A stretch of DNA of 64,000 nt from Rhizophagus irregularis (lineage: Eukaryota > Glomeromycota > Glomeromycetes > Glomerales > Glomeraceae): NCBI RefSeq assembly GCF_026210795.1, contig NC_089442.1:2604001-2668000 (forward strand), read 5' to 3'. Made by a program: the position numbers and the translations under genes. The notes under the pieces were generated by a model. It saw nothing but the letters and a program-made list of their open reading frames with translations, was not told the origin of the DNA and did no database searches. Below are positions 40,454 to 61,398 of the stretch, in pieces; the stretch's first letter is position 1; each line of letters begins with the position of its first letter.

Positions 40454-40556
40454 ACAAATGTATTAGACTAAGAATATATCCAGTATGATTTTCATATATA
40501 AAATAAAATCTTACATCACAAAAAGAGTTTGTCCATATCATTATCCATTACAGGTG

Positions 40557-41018
40557 TTATTGCCGTTTTCAGAAATGTTGACATTAGAATGTTGATCATT
40601 TCTATAAATCAACAATACGACCGACACACTGAACACAGCAATTAAAATTAAAAAAAAACAAATTTTCCTTTAAAAAAAGCAAAATTAAAACTTTAGTAAT
40701 ATATTTTTAGGTAGTGTGCATAAAAAAATGTATAAAAATTATATTATTTGCATATATGTATTCACTTGCATTTGCTTGTATTTGCCAATGTTCAGTATGT
40801 TCAATGTGTTCGTTTGTGTTTGGTGTGTGTTTGGTACAAATTTTCATATTTTTAATTTTATTCATATTTAAAAAGTGACAAAAATAGTTTTTATATAAAG
40901 TTATGCATGAATACTTCAAGTTTGCATAATTTTTTGTATGTGTTCACGGTGTGTTCAGTGTGTTTGGTATAAAATGGTCAAAATTTCAGATTGTCAACAT
41001 TTCTGAAAACGGCAATAA
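40557..41018. repeat. Perfect 27-bp inverted repeat, 408 bp apart
   Basis: TTATTGCCGTTTTCAGAAAT at 40557-40583 is repeated as its complement at 40992-41018, 27 of 27 bp. The right copy contains the last codons of the decayed minus-strand gene ending at 40986. Just inside, GACACACTGAACAC and its complement GTGTTCAGTGTGT also face each other. The segment therefore has nested inverted ends. Confidence 0.8.
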
Positions 41019-42079
41019 ATCATCATCGGGTAAATGTAACCACTCATGTAAATCCTCAGTATTATCATCAGCAAAAGGAATAAACGAACAGATCTTTCTC
41101 TGTACTTTTTCCTGTTCAACAAACTCATTTCGGATGACTGCAAAAAAATTGAAGATTTTTGCGTAGCATGTTATGGCTTCAAAGAAAAAAGGAATCACAC
41201 ATGAGGCCAATTCAATGGCTAAATACTTTTTTTTCTCAACAAGGGAAATAGCAAATAATGTAATCTGATCACTAACAATTTGAATGCTATACATTCTTAC
41301 TTTCTTGGCATCTTTGATCGGGCAATCTAAATTGTCAGAAAGCATTTTACACAGACTGCAAACAGCCATCATGAGTAATTTTTTTGCATTACCAACTGTA
41401 TCCTTTTAGTAGATTTATAAGGTGACTCTGATACTTCAATCTTTAATAATTCATTCATATCTGATAATCTCAGAACAAGTACATCTATTTTGCGACGATT
41501 AATATTGCCATAAATATTTTATTAACTTCTTTAATTGATTCAACGTCCTTTTTAATCCATTTATACTTTACTTCAGGAAAGGCATTTAACAATATACGAT
41601 CTTTCTTTCATATCCCTATCTAGAACCTTTGGTGTCAAATATTTGAACATTGCAACAAAATCAAGTAAGGTATGTCTTATGAAAAAAAGGAACCTAGCTT
41701 TCTCAGTTGTTTCGTTGTCTTTTTCAGTTACTGTCTTTTCCACTATTTTTGAAAAAATTTCTGAATAGTCCGACTAAAAAATTACTTCAAGTTTTTTATT
41801 TATTAAGTCCTTTAAAACTAATTTATTTCGCAGTTGAAGAATTCTTTCGATTTCCTCATATAATTTCTTTTCTGTGATTTGTTGAACGAGGTGTATTGTT
41901 GCATTGAAGACACAAATAACATGTGTAAAATATTGATTAAATGTTGTGTTTGTAATGATGGGCTTATTGGATGTTACGATCAAAGTATTTGTAACTATTG
42001 ATGTTGTAGGATATGGTGTACTTTCATACGAATTATTCTCTTCATGGACATATTGTTTTGATCTTGCATTTTTATATGG
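40986..42079 (-). pseudogene. 3' part of a decayed host gene interrupted by element A
   Basis: On the minus strand readable pieces run from NARSKQYVHEENNSYES near 42070 through FNQYFTHVICVFNATIHLVQ, FFIRHTLLDFVAMFKYLTPK and RRKIDVLVLRLSDMNELLKI to CKMLSDNLDCPIKDAKKVRM and a final LLPFSEMLTI stop at 40986. In-frame stops and frameshifts separate them, for example a TAG after KKLEVIF. The middle part has a DVLVLR...LLKIEVS arrangement that resembles a PD-(D/E)XK nuclease core. The beginning of the gene is proposed to be at 60388-61398 on the far side of element A. Function is unknown; the joining is an inference. Confidence 0.65.
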
Positions 42080-42318
42080 TACAGAACCTCTATAATAGGA
42101 ACTTAAAAAAATTTAAATAAAATTTGACTCTATGATCAGATTTTAATTTTATAAAAAGATTAAACTCTATTTATTAAAAGGAATTGATTTATATATATAA
42201 AAAAAAAAAGTCTCAATTTTTTCAGATTATGTAAGCATCACGTGATACTACATATATTAGCCAATCAGAATTAGGATTTTATAAGTTACATAATATAAAA
42301 TTTATATAATATATTTAT

Positions 42319-42611
42319 TTATTGTATTTCATTATAAATTGAATTAGGTACACGACAATGAGATTTATATTTTTTAACAGCAAATTCAGCCATTTTTCCA
42401 GTAATTCCCTTTCTGTAAATATCCATATATTCCCATGATTTTCTTGCAAATTTCTAATTGTAATTAATGAAACTGAATCTAATGCTTCTGGTACAATTTT
42501 TTGTAAATCTAACCATATATAATTACAATTATCTCTTGTATATTTTTTTGCTACTCTCCAATACATTTCAATAAAATTTAATTCACAATGGTATTTTGGA
42601 TAAAAAATACA
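42319..42611 (-). pseudogene. C-terminal part of element A's DDE transposase
   Basis: The minus-strand frame reads CIFYPKYHCELNFIEMYWRV, KKYTRDNCNYIW, ALDSVSLITIR, then after a one-base deletion FARKSWEYMDIYRKGITGKM and AEFAVKKYKSH to a stop at 42319. CELNFIEMYW with its final Asp/Glu is the last catalytic block of this fungal transposase family (DDE superfamily endonuclease type). The N-terminal part is at 57961-60003; the two parts abut exactly when element B is removed. Confidence 0.85.
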
Positions 42612-42724
42612 TATACAGTCAACTCTCTTTATAGTCACACATTTGGAACAGTCTATATTTGGTGATTATAAAGAGATGTGACTATATAAAAAATTTCTTA
42701 CTTTGCTGAAACTTGGAGTTTACA

Positions 42725-43545
42725 ATCGATATTAATTAGATATCGCAATGATATCATTACGATATCATTACGATATTTTGATAAAAAATAGATTCGACGT
42801 CGTTAAGTTAATCGTAACTGTATTTAATCGACATCGATTAGTTCGATATCTCTGCGATATCGCTGCGATCATTATGCGATGTAAATATTATCACGTAACC
42901 ACATCGTAGTGATGTCGTATTAACATTGAATTAATATTACAAAAATATTTGACATTTATTTGATATCGTAACCATGTCGTAGTGATATTGTATTAATATT
43001 GTCAAAATATTTGACATTTTATTTGATATCGTAACCACATCGTAGTGATATCATATTAACATCGAATTAATATTGCAAAAATATTTGACATTTTATTTGA
43101 TATCGTAACCACATCGTAGTGATGTCGTATTAACATTGAATTAATATTACAAAATATTTGACATTTTATTTGATATCGTACCCACATCGTAGTGATATCA
43201 TATTAACATCGAATTAATATTGCAAAATATTTGACATTTTATTTTGATATCATAACCACATCGTAGCCATATCGTAGTGATATCATATTAACATCGAATT
43301 AATATTGCAAAAATATTAAAAATATTTTACATCTATTTGATATCGTAGCCACATCGTAGTGATGTCGTATTAACATTGAATTAATATTACAATTTTATTT
43401 GATATCGTAACTACATCATAATAATATCATATTAATATCGAATTAATATTACAAAAAATGTTTTACATTTATTTAATATCGTAACTACATCGTAATGATA
43501 TTATATTAACACCGAATTAACATCACAAAAATATTTTTATTGTAA
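42725..43545. repeat. GATATCG satellite near the left end of element B
   Basis: Units of about 65-85 bp built from GATATCGTAACCACATCGTA, GTGATATCATATTAACATCG and AATTAATATTGCAAAAATAT; the CATCGTAGTGAT core occurs near 42903, 43039, 43113, 43184, 43267 and 43353 among others. Related to the arrays at 806 and 55640 by the GATATC and CATATTAACATCG-type motifs. Confidence 0.85.
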
Positions 43546-44834
43546 TATATGTTTATTATTTATTATACATTAATAATAATAATTTTTTATTAGTGGATTA
43601 TTATGGGTGAGTGGAGTACATTTCTTTTCTTCCTTTTTTTTTTATTCTTTTCTTCTCTTTTTTATTCTTTTCTTCTCGTATGTGAGTGGATGGATACGTC
43701 ATTTTCAATTTTTAAAATATATATATATATATATAAAAAAAATAAAAAAAACAATCATGATTAATAAAATGTACTCTTTGTAAAATATATTTAAAATTTA
43801 ATACATAACCTTGGGATAATAGTTAGAGCAGGTAATTCCGGGATTTTGTAAAGAATAATAAAAATGATAATATTTTTAAGTTAGTTCTTTCTTTAAATTT
43901 TTTTGAAAGTGTTTTGTTTCTTAAAATCATAATATTGTAAAAAAATGCTGGTTGCTACGACTGATGGACAACGACAAATTGTCAGGCTACCCCCGGACAA
44001 AGTAATTGGAAGGCGGAAAATGCCATAAATATCCAGCCCTATTTTACAACATTTTCTTCCAGGCTAAAGCAAATATTACAAAAGAAATTGCAAATATATT
44101 TAACAAGCAATAGATACATGGCCGTTGAAAAATATATTCACACTTCATATTGTAATATCACAGTCTAACAAAGAAATTGCAAATATATTTAACAAGCAAT
44201 AGATACATGGCCGTTGAAAAATATATTCACATTTATACCACAGTCTAACAAAAAAATACTCAAACCACAACATATTGTAAAAAAAATATGAAAAATACGC
44301 GTATATCCTATTTTCATACCTTGCTTAACAGCTCCACTATTTATTTAAAAACCGGCTTTTTTCTCTTTTGTATGTGGGTAGGTGGGTACATTTTTCCTTT
44401 CTTTTATTCTTTTCTTTCGTATGTGAGTGGCGGGTACATTTTCTTTTCTTTATTCTTGCTTTTATTCTTGCTTTTCGTATGTGGGTGTCTTTACTATGTT
44501 GAATATATAAACTAAAGTGTCCCAAAGTATTGTTAATATTGTAAAAAGATAATTAAAGTATACTTTAAAAAGAAAAAAGAAGAGACGAACTAAAATACCG
44601 TAAAGTATTAATATAAAAAACAAGAGAAAAGCGTATTTTTGAAAATAAACAAAAAAAATCTCATTAATAAACGCGAATTTTAGCTATTTTTAGATATCAC
44701 ATGCATGTAATTAAAGTGATTTTAATTGGTTAATTTTAATTTATTATTACATCATGCATATGATTTTATTGGTTAAAATTTTATACGATACAAATTAAAA
44801 TAATTATTTTATTATATTTATATAATTAATATAA
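43546..44834. other. Non-coding part of element B with an 89-bp duplication
   Basis: A segment beginning AAAGAAATTGCAAATATATT is present at 44081 and again at 44170 (89 bp apart), nearly identical. CTTTTCTTCTC- and GTGGGTGGGTACATTTTC-like stretches recur around 43600-43690 and 44370-44490. No gene is supported. Confidence 0.55.
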
Positions 44835-47800
44835 TTATATGGCTGTAAAATAAAAATTATTTTTTATCCAAATTCTATTTGTAGTATCGTGATTTGGTAG
44901 TTGGCACCTTTCTGAATTACAATTATGAATAAAATGTACTTTTTGAACATTATCTATTACAGTAATTGGAAAAATACGTCTCCATTTATCTCCCTGTTGG
45001 CTTGGAGACGGTAAAGTGGACATTTTAATACTGAATGTTCAACCATAGTATCTTCAAACCAATCTACAACAATAAATGCATAATATTTGTTATTGTTACC
45101 CTTATGTTGAAAGATACCTTTGATTATTGCATAAGATTCTTCATGATCTTCTTCATAAATTGTGATAAAATCATCAAAATGTAGGTGAACTTTTGAAAGG
45201 ATACCATTTTCTTCTTCAATCATATATGATGCAAATTTGTACCAACTAATTGAAGAGTTTATAAGTGCCGCCTCAAACTTCATATCCACATAAGATAAAA
45301 ACAATTCAGTTTTAAAATTATGTAAAGTTAAAAGAAGTTTATCACGTTCCTGCTTTGGCATTCTTTTTTTTAATGAAATATTGGAAATAAAGTTTACTGG
45401 AGATATAACTAAATTAAAAGATTAGTAAATATAAATATCAAACATGTATTATTATATGCAATAAAATACTTACTTTTTGTATCATCATCATCGTCTTGAA
45501 CTTGTTCAGTTGCTTCAGTTGAATATTTATCTTCTGTAACATACCAATTTAAAAATAATTGTCCAAAATTTGAATTTGTAAATCCAGTACAAGATCTATT
45601 AAATCTTGGATCAATACCACCATCTGCTAAATGTCGAATTGCAAATAAAGTATTGTAACGCTTTAATAAATCTAAATCTATGTTTTTGCAATTAGTTTTT
45701 GGTACCATCCCCTTAAAAATACGATGGACCATTTCTTTTATACCAACTTGGGTATTAATAAGTGTTCAAAGGTTTTAGCATGCATCAAAAGATGCATATT
45801 AACGTGTATGTTTGGTAAATTAACAAAATTTACAAAAACCTATAAAAAGTAAAATATTGTTAATTATTTGAAATTATTCCACATTTCAATATCAAATTTG
45901 TAACTATACCTTTGGAAGGATTGAAAACTCTTCTTCAAGACATTGTTGCAATTCCTCATAGCTATTTGATGTAAATTTCTTGTTAAAAACTGCTTTCATA
46001 GTTTTTGCAACATGTATCCAACAAGATATAATAATTTTTGGAACTGAACTAACTCGAAATGCATCAATTCGTTGAATCATGGCTGTTTCATTACGTTTGA
46101 TACTTGATTCTTTTAAAAACTGGTTTAACAAAAATGGCATAATCATAGCTAATCTAAGTAAATCCGACATCATAAAACTATTGTAGTGAGTAATCGGATT
46201 TGGTAAGCGAGACCATCTTTTTGGGATTTCAAAATTTTTCCAAATTTCGATAAAATTATCTTCTCCTTCTCGTGAAAATAATTCACAAGTTAATTTTAGT
46301 AGCCGCCCAATCTTTCCTGCAGTCACATGATAAACATCCTGCGGCGTCTGTAAATGTCTTTCCCTTTTTAATTTATCTAAAATACTAGGTAATGATCGTA
46401 AACCATATTCCGTACAAAGTTGATGTCTTGACATTATAGTCTCGTGAGAAATTTTTAAGATTTCTTCGTCTGTAATATGATGATAACGTAATGTTGTTAC
46501 GATATCCTGATTGTGAGCACTAAGGTTGCTTGCCGAAACCTAGGGGTTTAGGCAAGATGGCGTTTCGCCGAAAAGTGAAATTCTGCCGAAACTATATTAA
46601 AGTTATATTAAAAAACTGGCGAAACTTTGGAGAATGGCGAAACTGCCGAAACTTATTATAAATGCCGAAACTGCCGAAACTCTGCTGAAACTATAATAAA
46701 TCTATAGTAAAATTTTGACGAAACTAATCGTAGGATTTTGAAGAGGTTTAGACAAGCAACCTTAGTGAGCACTCAATGATTCTTTAGTAGTTTTACAAGT
46801 ACGACAACCCTTATTTGCATTATGTCTAAATTTATTTTTTAAAAAATTTTAATAGTTGTCATAAAATTATATTATTATATTATTAACTAAGTTGAAAAAA
46901 TACCTTAGTACTCCTGTCATATCGTTACCTGGAGGTAAATCTGCCGTAACAACGCCTAAACCAGCAATTATCCATGCATCTTGTCCTTGGACAGTCATCA
47001 CCTTTCCTTTCTCTAATTCCTTCATTTCTGAAATGAATGGTATCATAAATTCGTCAAATTTTCCTCCAAATGGGATAAACCCAATAACAAAATAGTTCTT
47101 TATTAGCTTTCTTTGATGTGCTGGCATATTTCCAAACTGTACATAAACACCACCTAGAGAATGGTATACATTTCTAAATGTACCAAAATCATCATAATAA
47201 AGATCTAAAAACAGCTTATAGATTGGCATAGATGATGATGGTGGATTTCTAATAGAAATGTAATCAGATGGATGTAGGTATGAAAGCTTTACATTACGAA
47301 CGTGCCAACGGTCATTACATTTATAAATTATTTCACTAATCCGCAATGAACCATCAGGAATATTTTGATGTTCGAAACATCATCAATATAGTTACTTTTT
47401 CTAAAATTTGAGAAGTCATTATAATTAAAAATCGTTCGTCTTGTAACCATACTTCACCGGTAATAGAACGACGTTGTCTTGGTAACCCTTTTAAATTTCC
47501 GGGTAAATCACTATATTCCAAAATTTTTTGAATTCGTAACTGATAATATCCATCATGATTTTTTAAAATTGATCTTAATCTTCCAAGTTTTTTTTGACCA
47601 TTATCATCATGATAGTAAACAAAATCACCAGATCGGTACAATACTATTTATTAAAAATAAATAACTTTAATAAATATTATCAATGATAATAAATTATAAT
47701 TGTATCAAAGTGTATTAATTTATAACCTTCTGATATTAATATTTCGTGTTGTCCAAAAAGTGGGGATTCCCCCCATAAATTTCCATGCCAAAATTCTGAT

Positions 47801-48719
47801 TTTTCTTCAGAATTAATGCCGGGTCCAAAATACATATGCTTCATTAGCATCGGATTATTAAGAACACGCCATATAATTTCACTAATTGAGAGTTGATACG
47901 AAAGTTTTGATCCTCGTGAGGTTGATGGAGTTTTTTTTGGTGAAATTTTAATAGACTTTGTTATTATTGGTAGGAGAGGAAGACGTTTTCTCCATGATTG
48001 GAATCTTCAGATATTTTTTACCACATGGGTAGGTTCAAATTGAGAATTGTGAATGATATCGACAAGATCTTCATATGCTTTCGTAGAAACATTATGTTTC
48101 GAAGCCAGCAAAATAATGCCGTAGTTGTATAATTATCAAAGTACGGTGCAAATAGACCATTGCAGAACGGTATCTTGTCTTCATCTAACGCTTCAACGAT
48201 TTGATGTATTTCTTCCTCTTCGTTATTACGTTCCTCTTCATCGTTATTACGTTCCTTTTCATCATAATTACGTTCCTCTTCATCGTTATTACGTTCCTCT
48301 TCCACTTGATTATTATTATCATCATTATTACCTTCATCCTCCTCCTCTTCGTCATTGTTTTCATTATTATCTTCCTCCTCTTCCTCCTCTTCATAATTGT
48401 ATTCGTTATCACTTTCTTCTTCCTCTTCAGTATCAGATGAATTGACATTATCTTGCGAAAATATCATCTCATCATTGTAGTCTTGAGGATTAATTGATCC
48501 ATATGCATTATCGTCATCATTAATGTCTTGAAAACTTAAATCATCTTTATGATCATACTGAAAGTCCATGTCATCGTTATCATTATCAGGTGAACGTATA
48601 GGCGAACGAATTGCCACTCTCTCGTCAGAATCTGTTGTCTCATTAGGTTTGCTGTAAGAAAACCGATTTCGAATTCGAATTGGCTCTATTGGCTTGTTGT
48701 GACTATATCGTCTTCTCAT
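44835..48719 (-). pseudogene. Decayed Tnp2-like transposase gene with BAH-like region
   Basis: Starting at 48719 the minus strand encodes a basic then very acidic N-terminus, a region with WHGNLWGESPLFGQH, a BAH-like piece (YRSGDFVYYHDDNGQKKLGR), a core reading LGGVYVQFGNMPAHQRKLIK, then IAGLGVVTADLPPGND and GCRTCKTTKES, and a long helical C-terminal part (RLPNPITHYNSFMMSDLLRL, VNMHLLMHAKTFEHL) to a stop at 44835. The order of the ADLPPGN and CxxC blocks resembles Tnp2/CMC transposases, a remote likeness by eye. Lesions: one-base deletions near 48075, 45765 and 45000, shifts near 47385, an in-frame TGA near 48012, and a MITE at 46521. Introns are visible at about 46820-46910 and 45850-45910. 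It cannot make a full protein. Confidence 0.75.
46521..46764. mobile_element. 244-bp hAT-type MITE with perfect 8-bp target duplication
   Basis: Ends are TAAGGTTGCTTGCCGAAACC on the left and its imperfect complement GACAAGCAACCTTA on the right. The 8-bp target duplication GTGAGCAC is at 46513-46520 and 46765-46772, identical. The interior repeats GCCGAAACT many times and has no gene. Removing the element and one duplication restores an uninterrupted reading frame (KESLSAHNQDIVTT) of the surrounding pseudogene. Confidence 0.93.
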
Positions 48720-48779
48720 CTTTATAACAATTTAAAATAATTCAAATTTAATTAGAATTTTATAAATTCAATTAGAACT

Positions 48780-49130
48780 AAATTTATTAAATACTATTAG
48801 TGTGTCGGCAAAAAAAAAATGCAATTAAGTAATCAATTCGGTTAAATTACTGCCGATTTGGCTACACAAAATTTAGGGTCAATTATACCGGCTGTATATG
48901 GTTAATGACAATTGGTATGACAAATAATATTATCGAAAATAGTCATTTATTGAATGAAAATAAAATAAAATATATAATAATATAAAACATAATAATAAAA
49001 TAAAATAAAACATATAATAATATAAACATAATAATAATAAAATAAAATAAAACATAATATTAAAATAAAATAAAACATAATAATAAAATAAAATAAAATA
49101 TATTAAAATAATAAAATAAAAAATAAAAAA
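48780..49130. repeat. AATAAAATAAAAT low-complexity tract
   Basis: Positions ~48950-49130 are almost only AATAAAATAAAAT and ATAATAATA repeats. This lies just downstream of the Myb/SANT-RS gene and upstream of the Tnp2-like gene. No coding content. Confidence 0.7.
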
Positions 49131-49758
49131 TCAATGACGTCGGTGAGAGCGCCCGCGCTCTCGGTGGTAGGGAGATCGAGAATGAGAGCGCCTGCGCTCT
49201 CGGTGGTGAGGAGATCGAGAATGAGAGCGCCTGCGCTCTCGGTGGTAGTAGGGGGATTGGGAGCGAGAGCGCCTGCGCTCTCTATACTCGTATGTCCTAC
49301 GATCCATCCTATTTCTCCGGGCGGCCCGGACTTATGCTTAAAACAAAGCAAGTATTAATATAAATGCAATGAATTAATGAAAAAATCAGTTAAATAATAA
49401 ATACTTACGCTCCACTCTCCAAAACTCGTCAGAGAGTTCCTGGTGGAATCTCTCGTCATGCAAAGTCGGGGTACGAGTGGGATATCCTTCAGGATTTCTG
49501 TTTATTAATCTCTCTAAATTCTCGTACCCTGACTTTAGCGCATTCCATTTCTCTCTACATTGTTTTCTAGTTGGCCTGAATATGTGGTTGTTTCGTATAT
49601 CACGAGCAATTCCACGCCATAATTGGTTTTGGTCATGTAACCTCGTTGTGGTAGAATAAGGGCTGATAGGCCCGACGATGCTGAATTAAGGTCAAAGCAG
49701 CGTCATCGGGCCATTGAATGTATACTGGAAGATTTGCGTTTAAGTTTAATGCTGCCAT
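49131..49758 (-). CDS. Myb/SANT-like DNA-binding protein with Arg/Ser-repeat tail (frameshifted)
   Basis: ATG at 49758 opens AALNLNANLPVYIQWPDDAA; after a one-base frameshift near 49637 the frame reads QNQLWRGIARDIRNNHIF, RPTRKQCREKWNALKSGYEN, LERLINRNPEGYPT and ELSDEFWRVE. This is a Myb/SANT- or trihelix-like DNA-binding domain (W..IA..I, QCREKWN.LK.GY). A GTAAGT donor at about 49408 leads to a second exon in which the 39-bp tandem repeat encodes HRERRRSHSRSPY units, ending RGRSHRRH and a stop at 49131. The Arg/Ser tail would be expected in the nucleus. Similar Myb/SANT genes are common companions of transposons. Other frames across the repeat are longer but give an implausible ESAGAL repeat. 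The frameshift means it may be a recent pseudogene. Confidence 0.6.
49140..49290. repeat. 39-bp tandem repeat with GAGAGCGCNNGCGCTCTC palindrome
   Basis: Four GAGAGCGCCTGCGCTCTC-like palindromes at about 49145, 49184, 49223 and 49265, each followed by GGTGGTGAGGAGATCGAGAA-like sequence. It is strikingly GC-rich in AT-rich surroundings. The repeat codes for the Arg/Ser tail of the gene on the minus strand. Confidence 0.85.
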
Positions 49759-50926
49759 TATTAAATATTATTAGTTTGATGGGGAAAATGTCAAGAAAAG
49801 GCTCTATATTTATAATAAATTTATTATGATTTCTTTGAGTTTATTTTTACGATGTAAACGGTCGAATATCAAGCACGAAAAGATGATAAAATTCAACCAC
49901 CAAATGTAATTATTAAATATTAAGAACGAACAAATTAATCGTGGATTGGCGTAGATGGATAAATAATTAGCCGAAAAGGATAAACATTTAGGAGGAGTAA
50001 TGATCTACATGATGTAATATTTATCAAATGATTGACAAAGAACCAATAGGATAAATAGAGTCGATCAATTGCGGCTTAGCAATCTTTAACAATAAGAACG
50101 ATTAGAAAGAATAACTATAAGCCACAAAAGATAGATTATAAGCAAAACACATGAAGCGGATTGAAAGAACATATAAAATAATGTCGGAAAGATTAAAGAA
50201 CATAAAATAATATAAAAGATAATATAAAAAGATAATACAAAGATGTTATAAAAGATAATATATATATATAAAAGATAGCATATTAAAAGATAGTGTTTTT
50301 AAAATATAGATAGTATATTAGAAAGATAGTTCAAAGATAATATGTAAAAAGAACATAAAAGATAGTATATAGATAGAATAGAAAGTAGCATAAAATTTGT
50401 ATAAAAAGAGAACGGAATTCAAAATAATTCCACAGTTCTCATCCACAGAACTCAATAAAAATATAAGTTTCATTTAATTATTTGTTAATGAAGTTTAATA
50501 TTAATTAAAGGTAATAGGTTCGCCCTAAACTTTAATTAATGTTCGCTTAATTAATTTTAATTGAATAAAATGGAAATTTAAGAAGAATTAAATATACACC
50601 ATTGAAAAGTAATAATTCGTAGCGAGAGCTATCAAAGTTTGAAATTAAAGGTAAAAGTGGATATAATTTGGGGAAAATTTGGAGAAGTTAAATTTTATTT
50701 TATATCGTTTGATGTTTTATATTACTAACGCTATTTATGTCGTGAACCAAGAATGTTGTTATTATATGTTGTTCGTTGATTATGTCGTTTGTGGATTATG
50801 TCGTTGATTATTTGCTTGTTCGTTTAATTGTTCGTTCGTTCGTTTATTCGTTCGTTCGACCATGGGAATGCCCGTTCGATGTGGCAACTCTGTAAATTGA
50901 AGACAGAGGGAATTGGGGGATCTCAA
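49759..50926. other. Upstream region of the Myb/SANT gene, low complexity
   Basis: AAAGATAATATA-type repeats fill about 50150-50400, and a TTCGTTCGTT run lies at about 50830-50860. No supported gene. Confidence 0.45.
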
Positions 50927-51300
50927 CGATCTTGTCTAAATTTTTTAGTTCTAATGCAATCATCCTTAATTAATTTATTTAACATTGAATACACACATAA
51001 TTTTTTTTTGATTTCTTTGAGTTTATTTTTACGATCTTGTCTAAATTTTTTAGTTCTAATGCAATCATCCTTAATTAATTTATTTAACAATGAATACACA
51101 CATAATTTTTTTTGATTTCTTTGAGTTTATTTTTACGATCTTGTCTAGTTCTAATGCAATCATCTTTAATTAATTTATTTAACACATATTTTTTTTTGAT
51201 TTCTTTGAGTTTATTTTTACGATCTTGCCTAAATTTTTTAGTTCTAATGCAATCATCTTTAATTAATTTATTTAACATTGAATACACTCAATTTTTTGAT
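50927..51300. repeat. Tandem repeat, 84-105-bp units, four copies
   Basis: CGATCTTGTCTAAATTTTTT starts near 50927, 51032, 51136 and 51220 (105, 104 and 84 bp apart). Each unit contains AGTTCTAATGCAATCATC, TTAATTAATTTATTTAACA and TTTGATTTCTTTGAGTTTAT. The last motif also occurs once at about 49829. Open frames across it are repeat by-products. Confidence 0.85.
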
Positions 51301-52481
51301 TTATCAATTTATTTTAAAAATATAATTATAGTAATACTGCATTAATTAATATATATAAATAAAAATAAATAAACAAATTCTATTAATAAAAAATGAGTTA
51401 AAATGTTATCTTTATACTTTATAATTATAAAATATAATATTTTAAATCACGCATGTCCTTGATTATATTTCATATTACACTGCGATGATATATTACAATT
51501 ATACTGAATTTTAAGCTAACCTTAATTTACACCGTAACAAACTTAATTTGATCTTAATTTACTCCGTTTTAGGAATATTATCGAACAATTAAACAAATGA
51601 TTAGTTGCACATGACTTGTATTATTTGAATAGTTGATACTTTATATACCGATATTTGATTACACCAATATGTATTAAAACTCTTTCCTATCAGTAATTTC
51701 ACAATTTCAATCAATATATCGGTATTTTTCAAATATCGTTGTAAGTCGACTACTGTAGATCCCATCTATTTTTTATGTAATCAATCCAGAGGCTTACACT
51801 AAATAGATATGGCTTAGTTAGATAGGATCACCACATGGTTCATTGGCTCAGTTATTTTTCCGTCAAGAGTACCAGGATCTTATAAATTTTTTTTTCTTGC
51901 GTCATCGTATCACACATAAAAATGGAAATTCAAAACGTAATATTCCATTAATTTCTTCTCACTCCTTTTCTTCTACCGATCATTTTTCTTCTCATCTTTC
52001 CATTATTTTTCTTCTCATTTCACGTATAGCCTAAAAAATATAATAAATTTGAAACCGTAAAATCGATTTGAGGTAATCTTCCATGTAAAAAAAAAATTTC
52101 ACTGAATGAAATTCGATATTGTAATAATTTATTTATATTAATTAAATTTAATTTTCGATCTTCTAGAAATCATAATTTTTAGTTTTCCCATCTCCTGATA
52201 TTTTTAACTGATCCTGCATTTTACACGATACACAATGATATTAAGATCACGTATATTTTCCAATTAAATACTACAATCATAATTACAATAGCTAAAATCT
52301 CAAAATTATATCATGATAACCTCGCCCTTTTTTTTGTTCATTCAATATTTATCATCTACTTTTTTGAGCAAGAAAGTTGCTCTACATTTTTTATTCATTC
52401 ATATTTTCTCGATAAATATCACCTACTTTTAAACAAAAAGGTTGTTCCACTTTTTTTTTCGCTCATATTTTTTTTTATATT
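51301..52481. other. Intergenic region within element B
   Basis: AT-rich. A CTTTTTTGAGCAAGAAAGTTG / CTTTTAAACAAAAAGGTTGTTCCACTTTTTT pair near 52360-52460 resembles a short duplicated motif upstream of the next gene. No supported gene. Confidence 0.4.
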
Positions 52482-52794
52482 ATGACGACTAAACGTAAAT
52501 TACCTAATAAATCGTCTGATGATAATCAAGAAATGGAAGTTGAAGGAGGTATGTAGATATAACTCTTTTGTAAATTTATAGTAAGTTTTGCTTATATAGT
52601 TATATGTAAGAAGAATAATTAATAAATACCAAAAATATGTATAATAGGATCGAAAAGAAAACAAATTACGAAAAAAAGAAGAGATATTGACATTGAGAAA
52701 GCCAATCAGTTGATGAAAAAAAGTAAAAATAGTAATAAAGAAGCTGCCGAATCTGCCGATAAAGAAGTTATAGTAGTAAATGAAAAAAGAAGTA

Positions 52795-52838
<44 letters not shown>

Positions 52839-53697
52839 AATAATGATGATGATGAGAGTAAGACGGAAGATCATAAAAAACCTGAAGTATTTCAATCAAA
52901 GTCAAATTTAGAAATAGTTGCTTGGCTCGTCGACCATCCGGAAATTTTAAGATTGGCACTAGAAATGAACAATACGGATGTTGCTATCTCATTATCCAGT
53001 AAAATTACGGACGTAAGTATTAAATTAACATGATTTTATTATGTCTAAATCTTTTAAATAATGTATTTTTAATATTTTAGGATAAAATTCGTCTATGGGA
53101 CGAAAGTGTCAAGTGTCTTTTTTTACGTGCAAGAAGTCCGCGTGGTGAAGTTTTTGATGAGTTGATAACAAAAATTTTCAAAATAAAAATACATTCGAAC
53201 GAAGCTAAAAGCTACCTCAAAAAAACCCGAAAATTTTTTATCGATTTCAGAAATAAGTTTAACCAAATTATTTTAACTTCTATAGAAGAATTTAAAGAAA
53301 TAAGAAAAAACAGGTATTTATTTAATTGTTTCGTAGCTAACCAAATAGTGCTGTTTGTATTAATTATTAATTTAATTATAGAGCATCTACTGGAAGTTTA
53401 TCTCAAAAGGAACTTATAGATTACGTTGATGAAGAATTTGTCCAAAAGATTTTAAGCCGACAGCTTGTAGCTGTTAATATTTCAGAATTAACAAGAAATG
53501 GAGGATTCAATACCTTGGTTGATTTCGTAAGAGAAACCTTTAAGGTTTCGTGGAATGGAAAAAATTTGTCCGCCGTTAAAGAATTAGATAATATGACCAA
53601 AAAATTAACGATCCCTTCTAGGAGCGGAAATAAGATCGTTGATTCTTTATCGGTAAGTTATTTTATTTATACTGTACTGATACTTCATATCCTTTAA
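52482..53697 (+). CDS. Orphan protein with basic start and poly-Asp run
   Basis: Exons 52482-52548, 52648-53012, 53081-53313 and from 53382 join in frame. The start at 52482 (MTTKRKLPNKSSDDN) and KRKQITKKRR look like nuclear-localisation sequences. A GAT microsatellite (about 52796-52845) encodes a run of about 15 Asp. Then come NLEIVAWLVDHPEILRLALE, IRLWDESVKCLFLRARSPRG and helical sequence to KIVDSLS. A GTAAGT at 53653 may be a donor with the next exon lost or unrecognised; otherwise the frame stops at 53697. Length is about 315-325 residues. I do not recognise the family. It has clean splice phases and no internal stops, unlike the decayed neighbours, so it may be a live cargo gene of element B. 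Confidence 0.65.
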
Positions 53698-55640
53698 TCA
53701 TAGTTATTAATAATAATATTAAATTATACATAGTTATAAATCTTAGCAAACGCTCTAATTTTTTTATAAAATTATGCATTTTATAACGATATTACATTGA
53801 ATAAATTTAGTAAATTTTACAAGCAAATGATAATATGAAACATCATTATTATAAACATTATACCATAATGTCGAGTGATAATAATATAAAATAAAATGGA
53901 TGTATAAAACTATAAAATGTTTGTCTAAGATATAACATTTTCAAGTTTAAAAAGTAATTGTTGTTTTGTTAAAAATGGAATGGTTATTATATGACGTTTC
54001 TTCTTTAGTATATACGGCCTAAATATCTCTATATATTTGACGTTCTTATACAGATCAAAAAGAATACATTTGCATAACATTTGCGTAAAGTAAGAACTTT
54101 AAAGTTTAAGCCAATTCTGACTGATAATTTACAAAATAACAAACACATTTCTTAAAAAAAAATTCTGAATCAGAATACTTTTCCGGTTTCCATCTTCGAT
54201 TCTGCAAAAAATTGAAAAGTTCAGGTGATAATTTAAGAAATATCCACCTATAAAGAGACTAAACAATTATCAGGTTGATCAAGTTCGTGTAATACCAAAT
54301 TTAATAAATTGTCTGATTAAATGATCGCGTATATTAAATGATCGCGTATATTATAAGGCTATAAGGCCTATTAATTCCTAAAAAGTCAATTCAACCACCA
54401 TTTTATTTAACCGCTATTTATTTGTACGTTTTTTTTTTTGAAAAAAAAAAAACTTTCTTTCTGAAAAGTAGAGTCTTCGCTCCTATACCGTTTGCCGTCG
54501 TGCATAGTGTGTTATAGGAAAAGGCGGACTTGTTTGATTGATTATATGGGCATAAGCTTATGTTATATAGGCGTAAAACTTATATAATCAGTTTGATAAC
54601 GCAATGAAAATCCTTTAATCAAGGGTTAAAATAGGCACGATGTGAAATTCTCATATATCATGAGCTCTGTCTGTTCGAAGTGTCGTTTTATATATAATTA
54701 AGTAGGCTTAAGTCGTAAGTAACTTTTTTATAACATTGATTATTGGAGAATTAAGTGGCAAAAATAATTTTTAGTTTGTAAGACTTTAACTCCATACCAA
54801 CTTGTGTGTGTTTGGCGTATATTTTATTCTTTTAGACCTTTGCGTGGGTTAGGTAGGTTGCTTTGCATTTCTTGCAGCCTATCTTCTAATGGGTTTTAGG
54901 TCCACGTTTGCCCATTTAAAATTTATTAAACAGGATGTCATTCGTCCAAACACATTGCAACGTTTGTTGATGAAGCTATGGTTGTCTAATAAAAGTTCGC
55001 TTTGCCTGGCAATTTATAGTGGATTCAATGGATCAAATTACAAACAACAATAATTTAGTCATATGAGAATTCCAGGCCAAAGAATAAGGGTGCATTGTCA
55101 AAGTTGAGAATATATTTGTATTTTTTTTTTTAAAGCCGTCATTCTCATGAACTTTTTCATTGTATCCCTAAGTTCAATGATTTTGGTAATGATGAAACTG
55201 CAGTTGTTTATAGGGGTTTCCCGCCAAACTTCTGAGGTGAATTTGTCTGGTGTTTTCGAATATACTTATCCTTTTTGCAATAGAGTCATAGCGAGTCTTC
55301 TTAAAGCGTACCTGTGACACCCCATCCAACTTGGGCAGTGTCGCTGAATCTAAAGCAAGGTACCCGGTTAATCCTCAACTTTGGGTTGATGAGTTATGAT
55401 TCTGGAGTATTAAGGCATAATGTTTTGACTTACATTACCAATTTAACTCATAATTCTAATTTATTGAATTAGTTTATTATAGATTTATTGATATTTTTTT
55501 TATCTGTTATATAATATTTAAACTAATGTATACTTTATCTGTAATTAAAATTGTTATTGTAATAAATAACCGGTAACTTAAATCTATTGAAATTAACTTT
55601 TAAATTAGATTACAAATTATTAAAATATTATAAAATTGAA
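53698..55640. other. Non-coding region of element B
   Basis: AT-rich with a T11/A12 junction near 54430-54450. GC-richer pieces at 54880-55400 look like old transposon sequence but no frame is readable. Confidence 0.4.
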
Positions 55641-56450
55641 TTTAACGATATTTGATTGATTTGATATTTTTATAGATAATATCATTTTGATATTATTTTA
55701 ATACTGAATTAATATTAAAATAATATTATATTGATATTGCATTTATTAAAAAAAATCATTATTGTTATAACAATATCAAAATGATATCGTTTCGTTATTT
55801 GTCAATATCGATTAGATAATTATAAAGTGATATCTTTACGATATCATATTGATATTGAATTAATGTTGGAACGATATCATATTAATATCGTATTTACTTC
55901 CCATTTTTCAAAAAATTCATTGTTATTATAACAATATCGAAATGATATCAATTTGATGTTTCGTCAATATCATTATGATGTCGATTAGATAATTATAAAG
56001 TGATATCTTTACGATATCATATTGATATTGAATTAATGTTGGAACAATATCATATTAATATCGTATTTACTTTCTATTTTTCATTATTGTTATAACAATA
56101 TCGAAATATCGATATGATATCGATTTGATGTTTCGTCAATATCGTTATGATGTCGATTAGATAATTATAAAGTGATATCTTTACGATATCATATTGATAT
56201 TGAATTAATGTTGGAACGATATCATATTAATATCGTATTTACTTCCCATTTTTCAAAAAATTCATTGTTGTTATAACAATATCGAAATGATATCGATCTG
56301 ATATTTTTTCAAACAAATATCTTTACGATATCATTTCGATATATTGAATTAATATTGAAATGATATCATTGCGATATCATAATGATATCATTTGCAAATC
56401 GATATCACCACGATATTTATTTAACATCATTATTATATCAATTCGGTATT
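55640..56450. repeat. ~173-bp GATATC satellite near the right end of element B
   Basis: Three long units begin GATTAGATAATTATAAAGTG near 55810, 55983 and 56155 (172-173 bp apart) and include TTTACGATATCATATTGATA, ATCATATTAATATCGTATTT and TTATAACAATATCGAAATGA. Shorter partial units flank them. Confidence 0.9.
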
Positions 56451-56499
56451 GTTTAAAAATTCAAGGTTTCTGTAAAGTATATTAGTATATCATAATTCC

Positions 56500-57095
56500 A
56501 GCCAAAAATTAACATAATTTTAGCCAAAATTATACTCAAAACTTTATTGTATCGTAACTCCGCCAATATTAATCGTAGAGAGATGATCTTACCGCCATTC
56601 GATTCGTCTTGATGAGACGGTTCTAATGGTATAAAATACATCAAAATCCAATCACTAGATTAATTTCCGAAATTAAAAAAATATTAATGGTTTTTGTGTA
56701 ATAACTCTGCCAATATTGATCCTAGAGAGACGATCTTACCGCCATTCGATTCGTCTTGATGAGACGGTTCTAATAGTATAAAATACATCGAAATCCAATC
56801 ACTAGATTAATTTCCGAAATTAAAAAATATTAATGGTTTTTGTGTAATAACTCTGCCAATATTGATCCTAGAGAGACAATCTTACTACCATTCGATTCGT
56901 CTTAATGCGACGAATCTAATGGTATAAAATACATCGAAATCCAATCACTAGATCATCTTCCGAAATTAAAAAATATTAAATGGTTTTTAAGTAGTAACTC
57001 CGTCAATATTAATCACAGAGAGATGAGCTTACCACCATTCGATTCGTCTTGATGAGGCGATTCCAACGAGCTATTAATCGTCTTTTTACAATCAC
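56500..57095. repeat. ~147-bp tandem repeat, four copies plus one outlier
   Basis: GATTCGTCTTGATGAGACGG occurs at 56601, 56748, 56894 (diverged) and 57041, 146-147 bp apart, each preceded by a CTTACCGCCATTC stretch and, in the first three copies, followed by GGTATAAAATACATC and CCAATCACTAGAT. An isolated fifth piece lies at about 57680-57750. Confidence 0.9.
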
Positions 57096-57958
57096 TAGGT
57101 ACTGAGAAATTTAGCAAAATGTTAAATGGCGCAGTAAACGTAAATCAAGAAATATAATAATGCCGATGCTTAACATTTTGTTGAATAACTCATCAGCCAG
57201 TGATCGCAAAAGGATAAAACTGGCCCATCTCCAAATTCTTTCCCTAATATTACTTCTCCACAACAACACAACTCTTCTTTGGCGTCAGTTTCTCAGGATT
57301 CCTGGATTTCTTGGATATCCTCTTCTATAATTCGGGGTGGATCTTAGATCTCGCACTTGGATTTTCTGCGCCGCTTAACAGTTCAACCTCTTAGGATTTC
57401 TTTCTGGTAACGGACTGGATTTTTGGATGTTGGATAGTTGACTCACACTGGCCTTCGGGTAAAGTTGGGGTATGCGATTCTGTAATAGTTCAGTTTTTCT
57501 TTGCTTTAAATTTATTTTAGTTTAGATTTCTTTACTTGTATGAGTCGTGAAGCTACTCTTTTTATTTTTTATTGGTTTATTTTCTTATTTTTGTAATATT
57601 GTTCGATTACTTTTCGAAGTCCAAAGTATAAATAAAAGATAAGTCATAAGACTGTTTGCACAGCAAAAGGATAAAACTACCACCATTCGATTCATCTCAG
57701 TGAGATGATTCTAACAAGCTATGATACATCTTTGTACGATTATTAGATGCCAAGTTATTTAATATATTCTTTATATAACTGTGATTATAAACGGTTCTTT
57801 TTAATATAAGATTTTTGAGGATAGGTGTGATAGTGACTATAGATAGATTGTGACTATATAGGATAGTTTTTAATAATAAAGTGTTTTGAACATTCAACTG
57901 GTGTGACTATATAGTAGAATGTGACTATAACAGGAGTGACTATAGAGGGAGTTGACTG
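57096..57958. other. Right subterminal region of element B
   Basis: Non-coding. CAAAAGGATAAAACT occurs twice (about 57208 and 57664), and GTGACTATA repeats at about 57833, 57849, 57902, 57921 and 57936 before the terminal repeat. Such clustered subterminal motifs are typical transposase-binding sites (inference). Confidence 0.55.
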
Positions 57959-57960
57959 TA

Positions 57961-60003
57961 TGCCCTTTTTTTCTATTTCTTCTTGTAATTGAGATTTTTG
58001 TGCTTTAAAATCATCTTCTAAAGATAAAATTCTATGCATACAACAATCTGTTCTAGTTATATCTTCAATTTTTAATTTACATAATTGACAATAACCAATT
58101 AATCTTTCATACCATAAATTTCTTTCAATTAAAACTTGTTTCATACCCTTAGGTTGATTTGAAAAAGTTGGATGATTAGATGGAAAAATCATTGATTGAA
58201 AAGTTTTATTTGGACCAAAATAAGTTGATCTCATTCTTGCTTATTTTCCTTCTGGATTTACATTCATATTATTAACATTTTATGCATCTTTTGCCATTGC
58301 TCCATGATTTGTATTATTATTAAAAGGAAAAATACCAATACAATTAGGATATTTTACTTCAAATATTGGAATTGCATAATTTATAACTTGATCTAATAAA
58401 TGTTCTGCTGTCCACCATCCTTCTTCATTTTTTCCAGGTTTCAAAAATTTTCTAGCTTCAATTGGAACATTAGGATTTAATATAATTTCTTCTTCTGATA
58501 ATTTTAATCTACCTATTATTTTCAATAAAAATTTACTAACCATAATTGATTTTCCTTGTCCTTTTTTTCTTAAAGGTGGATTTCCAATAGGAGCCCAAAT
58601 TATTGGTCTATCATCATTAGAATAAAATAAATATTCATCATAAGTAACTAAAATATGCATTTTTTCATTGGGTAAAAGTGATGGATTTTGTTGTATCATA
58701 TTTTCACTTTCAAAACTTGGCATAAAATTTTTATATTGTAGCATTTTATTTAAAAAAACTTTTTTATATTCAATTATATTTTCTCTTTCATGTCCATCAA
58801 AATAAATACCCTTTTTTCTTGATTGTGGTTTTAATACTGTTTTAATCCTAATTTTTTAAACCAAATACGAGAAGTTTTAATAGAAATTGATCTCTTTGAT
58901 GTTTGTAAATTCATTTGTATAAATAATACTTGATTAATAAAAGTTTGATATTCTTTTGGTGTTGTTTTTCCTCCATTTTCACGAATAAATGATAAGCTTT
59001 TTTCAATTACATCTTCATCATCAATAAAAGACTTTATTTTTTGATGACATCCTTGTAAAGATCTAGGTAATACACCAAATTGAATCCAATTTTTTGCCCA
59101 ATTTCTAATTTGCCTTGCCTTATATATTCCCTTATTATAAATTTTTTTAGCTGATTGTAAACTTGCATCTATTTAAGTTATATTATTTTGTTTATAATAT
59201 TTAAAGAATAAATGCAATGCTTTATATCTTAAATATTCATAAGCATTTATTTTTTTTTTATTGGTAGATAAAATATTTTCAAGTTTAATTAAATGCTCAT
59301 CTTTTTTAATTTCCATTTTCTCTTCAATTTCTTCTTCATTTTCCTCTTCAATTTCCTTTTCACTTTCCTCTTCACTTTCTTTTTCAGTTTCTATTTCTTC
59401 TTCAACTTCTTTTTCACTTTTATTTTCACTTTTATTTTCAAATTCCATTTCCTCTTCTTCACTTTCTTCTTCACTCTCTTTTTCAAATTCCATTTCCCCT
59501 TCTTTATTTTCTTCTTCACTTTTATTTTCAAATTCCATTTTCTCTTCTTTACTTTCTTTTTCACTTTCTTTTTCAAATTCCATTTCCTTTTCTTCATTTT
59601 CTTTTTCACTTTCTTTTTCAATTTCCATTTCATCTTCACTTTTTTCTTCACTTTCTTTTTCTATTTCCATATTATCAAAATTAAAAAAATTAGTTATTGG
59701 TTGTGATAACTTTGCAGCTTGAGTAAATTTTCCTGAAGGACCATATTTTCTAAATTTTGTTGCTCTAGAATTTCCAGTATATGTTTTTTTTATTTTATTA
59801 TGTGCATTTTTTGACCAAATTAAAGTAAAATCACTTAATTTTTGAATTCTTTCATTTATAAATTCATCATCTGAACTGTCTTCTGAATATTCACTTGATG
59901 GTATATAATCATCATCTATAATATTAAATTAACCTATATTTGAACAACCTTGTTCATTAAATCTTTTTTTTGCAGCTTTAGAACTTTTTTTTCTTCTTGG
60001 CAT
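57961..60003 (-). pseudogene. N-terminal and central part of element A's DDE transposase
   Basis: From the ATG at 60003 (MPRRKKSSKAAKKRF) the minus strand encodes a Lys-rich start, a region repeating EKESEEKSEDEMEIE-like acidic units (59173-59670), a helix-turn-helix-like part (YIDGHERE-type GIYFDGHERENIIEYKK) and catalytic sequence HILVTYDEYLFYSNDD, IWAPIGNPPLRKKGQGKSIM, NNNTNHGAMAKDA, MRSTYFGPN and PKGMKQVLIER. The first and second acidic catalytic blocks are visible. Stops (for example TAA after KDA and at 59175) and a frameshift near 58830 disable it. The frame runs to EEIEKKGI at 57961, where element B interrupts it, and resumes at 42611. Confidence 0.85.
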
Positions 60004-60387
60004 ATTGAAAAAAAAATCTGAAGTATAATGATAATCAATGTTACATTAAATGTGGCTGAAAAAAATCTGTAACACACAAATTTAAACTAGTCTCAATTTT
60101 GACTAAATTTGATTGGCATATCTAAATTACAGATTTTTAAACAGCTAAAACTTGGCCAAAATTTAATTTAAAGAAAGCTAATGGTCATATCTATAAAAAT
60201 TATTGGTTAAATTTTTTATTTTAATATGAAAAATTTTTTTTTAGGAATTTATAATCAATCAATTGTTACTATACATAGGTAGTTGAGTATAGAGGTTCTG
60301 CACTATACTTTTAAAATAGATTCCAAAAATAAGGTTAGAATTGGATGATTTATAAATACACCATATATAACCTGGTAATTACAATAC

Positions 60388-61398
60388 CTTAGATTCTTCT
60401 ACATATTCATCAGAATCTGAGGATTCTGCATAGTTAACTTTCTTTTTTCTCCTGAGTACCATCTGTTCTTTATTTTCTGGTGTTCGTAGTTCACGTTGGG
60501 TGTGATCTCAAAGATTTGGAATGAAGGAAGAGGCTTCTTTATTCTTTTTATCTGCTTTCATTCTCTTTCGTTCTTATTCTACTGAATCAAACTCAATGCT
60601 GGCATATAATTGAAATCCTCATTGTGCTATCTGAATGCCAGCTTGTGTTCCCTTCTTCTGTGAATAACAAGTTCAGTAATAAAAATTAGAGAGAAAGTCA
60701 CTAAAATATATCAAAAAATTTATATTAAATCATTTACTTTGTTGAGATCTGACTCCAGCTCAAACAGCTCAGATTCCATTTTTATTGATGTGATTCGATC
60801 TCTCGCTTTCCAAATTTTTTTGTTTGTTGTGTCCTTTGTAATATTCTATATGAAAAAAATATTATATTAATGATCTAAGGGATTTAATAAATGCACTTTT
60901 TGAAATGTTAGATGGGAAGGAAGCCCACAATAAGCCACGGACACTCATCCCTCCCTCATTGACACTTGGCCCTCAAGAGAACATTCTTTGTTTGAACACT
61001 TGGCTCAACCTAATATTTCTATGGCCACGTACACTCAGCACTACCGATTAGTTTTATGCACGGCAAAATCTTTTCAATGCTCAGCTGTTAGATTAGCTAT
61101 AGAGTACACTGACACCACTTCGTCAAACACATGAAATTACTATTAAATATACCTGCAACTCTTTTAACAATTTAAGGATTTTATCGTAAGCAGGATGTAT
61201 ACTTGAATATACTTGTTTCAAACATCTCAACTCATCGGCTAAGGCTGTGTGAGAATTGTGTTTAGTAATATATATCGATTGCAGTTGCTTTTCAATCCAA
61301 TAAGTATTCCAGTCATTTATTCCCCAGGAGTTAAAATCCCAAGCCCAGTAATCTGGATATTTTAATTTTGAGCGATCTTTACTTGGTATATACTCCAT
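60388..61398 (-). pseudogene. 5' part of the decayed host gene interrupted by element A
   Basis: Minus-strand exons 61153-61398, 60738-60845 and 60388-60657 join in frame. The first reads MEYIPSKDRSKLKYPDYWAW and has several Trp; the second ITSIKMESELFELESDLNK; the third KKKGTQAGIQIAQ, stop, GFQLYASIEFDSVE, stop, then KKKVNYAESSDSDEYVEESK. Three in-frame stops (TGA, TAA, TGA) in the third exon disable it. The intron at 60846-61152 is long (307 bp) and probably carries an insertion. About 90 bp later element A begins, and on its other side a minus-strand frame continues (40986-42079). The family is not recognised. Confidence 0.65.

What the first reader, a model, noticed from the sequence alone, without database searches (positions are those of the whole stretch)
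40986..61398. Four-level nested insertion: host gene, element A, element B, hAT MITE
A decayed minus-strand gene appears in two parts (60388-61398 and 40986-42079). Between them is element A with matching CAGAACCTCTATA ends (42082 and 60300). A's transposase breaks after ...EEIEKKGI at 57961 and resumes with CIFYPKYHCEL at 42611, with no residue lost. The gap is filled by B (42614-57958), bounded by its own inverted ends next to TA. Inside B a Tnp2-like pseudogene is broken by a 244-bp MITE with a perfect 8-bp duplication. The order of events is therefore readable: host gene, A, B, MITE. The frame joins and end repeats are seen in the sequence; that both outer pieces were one gene is an inference.
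Basis: partly seen in the sequence, partly recalled or inferred. Interest (0 to 1): 0.85.

Follow-up and report, generated by a model that had tools for sequence, protein, structure and literature searches.

The report
Nested transposons with a site-targeting LINE
A broken gene of the plant-root fungus Rhizophagus irregularis holds a Russian-doll stack of mobile elements, and one doll proves to be the landing strip of a retrotransposon that, in this genome, inserts mostly at one exact spot inside copies of that DNA transposon: a parasite living on a parasite.

Summary
The nest is real, one level deeper than reported, and its middle layer reveals something better. The outer pieces are one gene: 13 of 56 homologues carry both, in order. 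Element A (42077-60305) sits at an intron/exon boundary with TA/TA duplications. True B is 1.56 kb (42616-42700 + 56480-57958), seen uninterrupted in four other loci. Inside it lies a separate 13.8-kb transposon, C (42701-56477; 2-bp duplications in 7 of 7 copies checked), which carries the pseudogene and the hAT MITE. B also holds a 5'-truncated LINE with a 15-bp duplication, at a LINE target site. In 40 B copies read, the site is empty (28) or filled from the same base by full-length (3) or truncated (4) LINEs or an unrelated ~1-kb element (5). 100 of 130 exact LINE 3' ends abut the exact target 13-mer; target variants agree on both sides in 17 of 17 pairs; tandem pile-ups occur. LINEs that target other transposons are a known kind (Xenopus Tx1L, recalled); my searches listed none in fungi.

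The parts
60388..61398 (-). Outer gene, N-terminal part: exons about 61398-61153, 60845-60738 and 60660-60388, decayed
   Evidence: tblastn of P0163 (R. irregularis, 398 aa) residues 1-82, 83-118 and 118-208; P0177 residues 1-82 at 98.8%
41016..42076 (-). Outer gene, C-terminal part, decayed (in-frame stops)
   Evidence: P0163 209-398 resumes at 42076; P0121 105-409
40519..40559 (-). Last ~14 codons of the outer gene, beyond the gene MITE
   Evidence: P0121 407-420 and P0124 274-287 match 40560-40519, E 0.002 and 0.005
40560..41015 (.). 456-bp MITE in the last exon of the outer gene, TIR TTGCCGTTTTCAGAAATGTTGACA, TA/TA (40558-40559, 41016-41017)
   Evidence: 25 of 26 end bases match; weak protein homology resumes across it
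60308..60387 (-). 80-bp GT...AG intron of the outer gene; A landed 2 bp into the next exon
42077..60305 (-). Element A, TA-duplicating DNA transposon, 2.88 kb without B; decayed transposase reads on the minus strand
   Evidence: TA 42075-42076 / 60306-60307; family ends; long copy L010; DDE_3 E=8.5e-5, below the curated cut-off
42616..57958 (.). Element B, TA-duplicating DNA transposon without long ORFs: 42616-42700 plus 56480-57958; 1,564 bp with the LINE remnant, 1,107 bp without
   Evidence: TA 42614-42615 / 57959-57960; TIR CAGTCAACTC(T/C)CT(T/C)TATAGTCAC; uninterrupted copies L022, L016, L043, L044; longest open stretch in the L016 copy 58 codons
42701..56477 (-). Element C, 13,777-bp DNA transposon inserted in B; imperfect TIR CTTTGCTGAAAC / CTTTACAGAAAC, subterminal tandem repeats, 2-bp duplication TA (42699-42700 / 56478-56479)
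   Evidence: Empty site in L022 and L016; copies; 26 of 41 left ends pair with a right end, median 12.9 kb; 7 of 7 flank pairs match
44957..48731 (-). Main decayed protein gene of C (no Tnp2 model found)
   Evidence: ORFs; Pfam
46521..46764 (.). 244-bp hAT-type MITE inside C's gene, 8-bp duplication GTGAGCAC (46513-46520 / 46765-46772)
   Evidence: best four copies 95.9-97.9% identical
57206..57220 (+). LINE target site, left copy: GCAAAAGGATAAAAC
57221..57662 (+). 5'-truncated LINE: only the last ~440 bp, ending AAGACTGTTTGCACA
   Evidence: Aligns to the 3' part of the 7.86-kb LINE in L043; LINE absent in L016
57663..57677 (+). LINE target site, right copy (duplication)
   Evidence: Identical to 57206-57220

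Best explanation
A gene known from arbuscular mycorrhizal fungi was hit in turn by A (at an intron/exon boundary), by B inside A's transposase, by C inside B, and by a hAT MITE inside C; a further MITE hit the gene's last exon. Shown: every junction, its duplication, and uninterrupted counterparts for A in the gene (homologous proteins), B in A, C in B and the LINE in B. B is the target of a sequence-specific LINE with an apurinic-type endonuclease and a reverse transcriptase. Shown: insertions of differing length and kind start at the same base of B, after CAGTGATCGNAAAAGGATAAAAC, and repeat that 15-bp target at the far end wherever I read it. Inferred: the LINE endonuclease nicks B at G[N]AAAAGGATAAAAC, the LINE RNA is copied there by target-primed reverse transcription (hence the 5' truncations), and each insertion rebuilds the target, so insertions pile up in tandem. 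Inferred: B, a multicopy TA transposon, gives the LINE a harmless and renewable home. A ~1-kb element without long ORFs, with a tRNA-like head by eye, uses the same site, presumably through the LINE's enzymes, though it does not share the LINE's tail.
For: Nest. Identity to the nearest of the fetched relatives rises inwards: A 90/84.5%, B 97.3-99.3%, C left end 98.8% (the small LINE remnant, 98.0%, and MITE, 97.9%, need not fit the row). Site specificity: of 40 B sites read, 28 empty, 3 full-length LINE, 4 truncated LINE, 5 the other element (the sample is not random). 100 of 130 exact LINE 3' ends are followed within 6 nt by the exact 13-mer; of 20 of the other 30 that I read, 16 have it with 1-3 edits, one has it decayed at the same place of B, and three lie elsewhere in B. 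Target variants C or G agree left and right in 17 of 17 pairs within 8 kb, 6 C/C and 11 G/G, p = 8e-5 if independent. Tandem insertions, one only 22 bp long (L126). LINE parts differ more (mean 95.8% identity) than the B parts beside them (99.0%) in 28 of 28 pairs of 8 loci. LINE domains: PF03372 4.6e-11, RVT_1 1.3e-17.
Against: One genome only. RNase_H is weak in L043 (E=0.0053, below cut-off). Three of the 20 off-pattern 3' ends lie at other spots of B, two of them in reverse orientation (L109, L122, L125), and 10 of the 130 ends were not read, so specificity is strong but not absolute. The p value assumes independent insertions. Endonuclease cleavage was not tested. A's transposase matches DDE_3 only below the curated cut-off.
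Confidence: 0.9

Rival explanations
1. One LINE inserted once into B, and the composite was then multiplied as a DNA transposon; short forms are internal deletions of it.
For: L043 and L044 are 9-kb composites with TIRs and TA flanks at unrelated loci; 7 of 7 right ends read are followed by TA. Composites may have moved too.
Against: The 6 truncated copies read lose the LINE 5' part at the target itself (within about 5 nt), at six truncation points, with no LINE 5' residue found (the window); target variants differ between copies and agree within each; tandem and unrelated insertions use the same base; LINEs are more diverged than their host B copies.
Confidence: 0.07
2. The junctions are assembly joins.
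For: No read data were available; the region is rich in repeats.
Against: Exact duplications at every junction; ends of B and C recur at dozens of places in the assembly; homologous proteins predict the outer join to the base.
Confidence: 0.02
3. The outer pieces belong to two different genes.
For: In this genome, 8 other places match the left piece and 9 the right at E<=0.01, and none is shared.
Against: 13 of 56 homologous proteins contain both in order; P0163 and P0121 join them without a gap; a clean 80-bp GT...AG intron lies at the junction.
Confidence: 0.03
4. C is a captured or rearranged host segment rather than a transposon.
For: It carries several unrelated ORFs (Myb/SANT PF13837, 4.2e-7) and no recognised transposase.
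Against: Both ends are multicopy (left 94-98%, right 99-100% in the main rows), pair at 8.8-20 kb (26 of 41), and have matched 2-bp duplications in 7 of 7 copies checked.
Confidence: 0.04

Closest known systems
Xenopus Tx1L in Tx1D (Tx1 clade; recalled; Tx1L papers stand in the reference lists of PMC8869645 and PMC6895275)
   Same: A LINE with an apurinic-type endonuclease that inserts at one site of a multicopy DNA transposon
   Different: Different kingdom and a different DNA transposon (TA duplication here; Tx1D is piggyBac-like by recall); clade not tested; a second, tail-unrelated element shares the target here
R1-clade target-specific LINEs (R1, TRAS, SART)
   Same: Apurinic endonuclease and strict target (PMC4640811, passage); 'LINE R1' is reported among the elements of R. 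irregularis (PMC8647823, passage)
   Different: Those named target rDNA or telomeric repeats (recalled); here a DNA transposon
Tc1/mariner-type TA elements (A, B)
   Same: TA duplication, TIRs; weak DDE_3 in A
   Different: B has no long ORF of its own; DDE_3 in A is below the curated cut-off
CACTA/Plavaka-type elements (C)
   Same: Large, short TIR, subterminal repeats, short duplication (family traits recalled)
   Different: No Tnp2 or Plavaka model found; TIR starts CTTTGC

Membership tests
Target-specific non-LTR retrotransposon (LINE) | Reverse transcriptase and LINE-type endonuclease | tested here: met
   L043: RVT_1 1.3e-17, Exo_endo_phos 4.6e-11
Target-specific non-LTR retrotransposon (LINE) | Insertions at one base position in a multicopy target | tested here: met
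   three exceptions elsewhere in B
Target-specific non-LTR retrotransposon (LINE) | Variable 5' truncation with a constant 3' end | tested here: met
   6 truncation points (and the window); spacings 148 to 4246 bp against 7826-7872 full length
Target-specific non-LTR retrotransposon (LINE) | Target-site duplication of 10-20 bp, as for apurinic-type LINEs (PMC6895275, passage) | tested here: met
   15 bp in the window; variants concordant in 17 of 17 pairs
Target-specific non-LTR retrotransposon (LINE) | Endonuclease cuts the target in vitro | not testable with these tools
   Needs purified protein
Tx1 or R1 clade | Position in a tree of reverse transcriptases | not tested
   No named reference sequences at hand; listed hits bear names such as reverse transcriptase family protein or jockey-like
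SINE (the ~1-kb element) | tRNA, 5S or 7SL promoter head | tested here: inconclusive
   B-box-like GGTTCGATTCC and a pairable end read by eye; no tRNA, no Rfam match
SINE (the ~1-kb element) | 3' tail shared with the partner LINE | tested here: not met
   blastn finds only chance matches of 12-27 nt, E>=0.06
Tc1/mariner (element A) | TA duplication and TIRs | tested here: met
Tc1/mariner (element A) | DDE transposase above curated cut-off | tested here: inconclusive
   DDE_3 22.9 bits against a cut-off of 28.6
Tnp2 / CACTA / Plavaka (element C) | Tnp2-type transposase | tested here: not met
   No such model listed at E<=10; HMMER's filters drop most weak matches
hAT MITE | 8-bp duplication and short TIR | tested here: met

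The most novel reading that the evidence does not exclude
A three-party mobile system: a DNA transposon without its own transposase (B) is a self-spreading landing pad onto which a LINE and an unrelated ~1-kb retroelement both lock at one base and stack in tandem; B then carries full-length LINEs as cargo when it transposes, so the LINE spreads both by copying itself and by riding.
Probability: 0.3. Interest if true: 0.75.

Novelty: new variant of a known kind. Interest (0 to 1): 0.58.

Why it matters
Target-specific LINEs are models for how retrotransposons choose sites and spare their hosts, and the well-studied cases known to me are mostly animal and mostly at rDNA or telomeres. A fungal LINE locked onto a young, dispersed DNA transposon gives some 400 natural empty and filled sites in one genome (416 pattern hits), so target recognition, 5' truncation and tandem insertion can be read from sequence. 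The second element, with an unrelated tail but the same target, asks what it borrows from the LINE. For TE annotation in arbuscular mycorrhizal fungi, where much of the repeat content is unclassified (PMC8647823, passage: 32% of the genome), it warns that layered composites can be mistaken for one element, as in the reading of this window.

Tried and rejected
Taking 42614-57958 as one 15-kb element: rejected by L022, L016, L043 and L044. A LINE amplified only as cargo of B: rejected as the main explanation (truncation points, target variants, divergence). The outer pieces as two genes, suggested: rejected. Tnp2 label for C: not found in Pfam or, for one piece, NCBIfam. tRNA and Rfam searches of the ~1-kb element: nothing; Rfam on window 40000-64000: nothing. 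Literature: searches (open PMC library only) listed no paper on a LINE targeting a DNA transposon in fungi; three listings were cut short (61: 12 of 15 papers, 62: 15 of 142, 81: 10 of 42). Papers read by passages only: PMC11075540, PMC8647823, PMC4640811, PMC3706591, PMC6895275, PMC3747384, PMC8869645. The Tx1L paper PMC85248 is not held, so Tx1D details are recalled. LINE clade: not placed. Structure prediction and fold search: not used.
Full report
WHAT IS THERE. The window is C14:2604001-2668000 of a 146.7-Mb genome in 32 contigs.

THE OUTER GENE. A search with the left piece found 56 proteins; 54 bear names of arbuscular mycorrhizal fungi (that group is recalled) and 2 bear no organism. 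Mapped back to the window, 13 of the 56 hold both outer pieces in order with E<1e-5 on both sides, 18 at E<1e-3. P0163 (R. irregularis, 398 aa) aligns 1-82, 83-118 and 118-208 to 61398-60388, then 209-398 from 42076. On the minus strand the exon ends AAG at 60388; an 80-bp intron GTATTG...AAAAG follows, and the next exon begins TATAAAAATGC, with A inserted 2 bp into it. Against this, in this genome the 8 other places matching the left piece and the 9 matching the right piece at E<=0.01 do not coincide; those paralogues are distant (the best left one 59% identical, the best right one 49%). The gene is decayed and was also hit in its last exon by a 456-bp MITE, beyond which P0121 and P0124 still match weakly (E 0.002 and 0.005).

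ELEMENT A. Short derivatives in 11 distinct loci show the true ends: 9 start TA|CGGTGCAGAACC and 2 differ by one base, and 11 of 11 end GGTTCTGCACTA|TA. L010 is a long copy that runs through the B site without B. The joined transposase scores DDE_3 at 8.5e-5, below the curated cut-off.

ELEMENT B AND ELEMENT C. L022 and L016 join window 42700 directly to 56478, and L043 and L044 do the same. So B is 42616-42700 plus 56480-57958 (1,564 bp), and C, 42701-56477 (13,777 bp), lies inside it. C's left and right ends each recur (40 of 710 and 40 of 175 candidates scored). Of 41 left ends, the window's included, 26 pair with a right end on the same strand, 8.8-20 kb away, median 12.9 kb; two of the 26 share one right end. 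Flanks repeat 2 bp in 7 of 7 copies checked, window included: TA four times, AA three times. The pseudogene and the hAT MITE are in C. Identity to the nearest of the fetched relatives is 84-90% for A, 97-99% for B and 98.8% for C's left end, in step with the nesting order.

THE LINE IN B. B holds 57221-57662, the last ~440 bp of a LINE, flanked by GCAAAAGGATAAAAC on both sides. L016 has the same place empty. L043 and L044 have LINEs of 7,855 and 7,836 bp there, with endonuclease and reverse transcriptase domains and a weak RNase H in L043.

THE SITE IS A TARGET. The B-specific left junction CAGTGATCGCAAAAGGATAAAAC occurs 416 times with up to 2 mismatches; the backwards control gives 0. I read 40 of the 100 listed. 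They were not a random sample: some, such as L084-L086, were chosen because a LINE end lay near. Result: 28 empty, 3 full-length LINE, 4 truncated LINE at four points, 5 another element. With the window and L022 that makes six truncation points, each joined to the target within about 5 nt and with no LINE 5' sequence found. The exact LINE 3' end AAGACTGTTTGCACA occurs 130 times; 100 are followed within 6 nt by the exact AAAAGGATAAAAC. Of the 30 others I read 20: 19 fetched (read) and L026. Sixteen have the target with 1-3 edits; L123 lies at the target place of B with the target decayed; L109, L122 and L125 lie elsewhere in B, the first two in reverse orientation. Among the 19 fetched, 12 are followed by another inserted LINE (2) or ~1-kb element (10), that is, tandem insertion. 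L126 stacks a LINE end, a 22-bp LINE stub and a full-length LINE start, each after its own target copy.

INDEPENDENT INSERTIONS. B copies differ at one target base (C, G or T). Pairing the 100 listed of 416 left junctions with the 100 right junctions gave 19 pairs within 20 kb; 18 agree, and the one that does not is 15.6 kb apart. Within 8 kb, 17 of 17 agree (6 C/C, 11 G/G; p = 8e-5 if independent). Eleven of these 17 are full length (7826-7872 bp); the other six have six different lengths. In 28 of 28 pairs among 8 loci, the LINE part (420 bp) is less alike (mean 95.8%) than the B part beside it (99.0%, which corrects, where one locus was counted twice). So different LINE copies seem to have entered a younger B family many times.

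A SECOND USER OF THE SITE. A ~1-kb element starts at or within a few bases of the same place in 5 of the 40 sites. In L133 and L135 it ends in the target and then B; in L130 and L134 the next insertion follows. The variant base agrees in 4 of 4 read (G, G, G, T); the fifth was cut off by the end of L132. Its longest open stretch is 84 codons. It has a tRNA-like head by eye, but ARAGORN, Rfam and a shared LINE tail were all negative.

MECHANISM. Shown: position, duplication, truncation, tandem stacking. Inferred: nicking by the LINE endonuclease at G[N]AAAAGGATAAAAC, target-primed reverse transcription, and rebuilding of the target at each insertion. A 15-bp duplication fits the 10-20 bp described for apurinic-type LINEs (PMC6895275, passage).

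WHAT IS KNOWN. LINEs that target rRNA, tRNA and snRNA genes, microsatellites, telomeres 'or other TEs' are a known kind (PMC8869645, passage, with the Tx1L paper among its references); most reported families belong to early-branched, Tx1 and R1 clades (PMC4640811, passage). R. irregularis libraries list LINE/L1-Tx1, L1-R1, I and others (PMC11075540, passage) and 'LINE R1' (PMC8647823, passage). The terms 'target site' and 'site-specific' do not occur in the main text of the first, nor 'target site' and 'specific site' in that of the second. My nine searches listed no paper on this association; the library holds only open papers and three listings were cut short.

VERDICT. The nest as such is ordinary for a genome rich in repeats, if unusually legible. 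The LINE with a DNA transposon as its landing site is the part worth following.

Noticed in passing
40560-41015: 456-bp MITE with near-perfect 26-bp inverted ends in the last exon of the outer gene, TA/TA flanks; not in the finding.
   Followed up: partly
L010, L015, L132: The same hAT MITE family has also landed in another A copy, in a short A derivative and in the ~1-kb target-sharing element.
   Followed up: no
L109, L122, L125: LINE 3' ends elsewhere in B, two at near-cognate sites (GTAAAAAGACGATT in L109, ATAAAAAGATGATT in L125), two in reverse orientation (L109, L122): possible relaxed targeting.
   Followed up: partly
42077-42082: A's left end reads TGGTA where family copies mostly read CGGTG: C to T and G to A changes such as CpG decay would give.
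   Followed up: no
49150-49290: GC-rich near-palindrome GAGAGCGCCTGCGCTCTC repeated about four times inside AT-rich C (read by eye).
   Followed up: no
49386-49685: Myb/SANT-like ORF in C (PF13837, 4.2e-7), and an unassigned plus-strand gene-like stretch at 52626-53697.
   Followed up: no
50489-50928: Part of C also found outside the C copy of locus L034 at 92.7%: C may itself hold another nested repeat.
   Followed up: no
42894-43536 and 55658-56400: Tandem repeats under both ends of C, partly inverted copies of one another; end-to-end distances vary from 8.8 to 20 kb between copies.
   Followed up: partly
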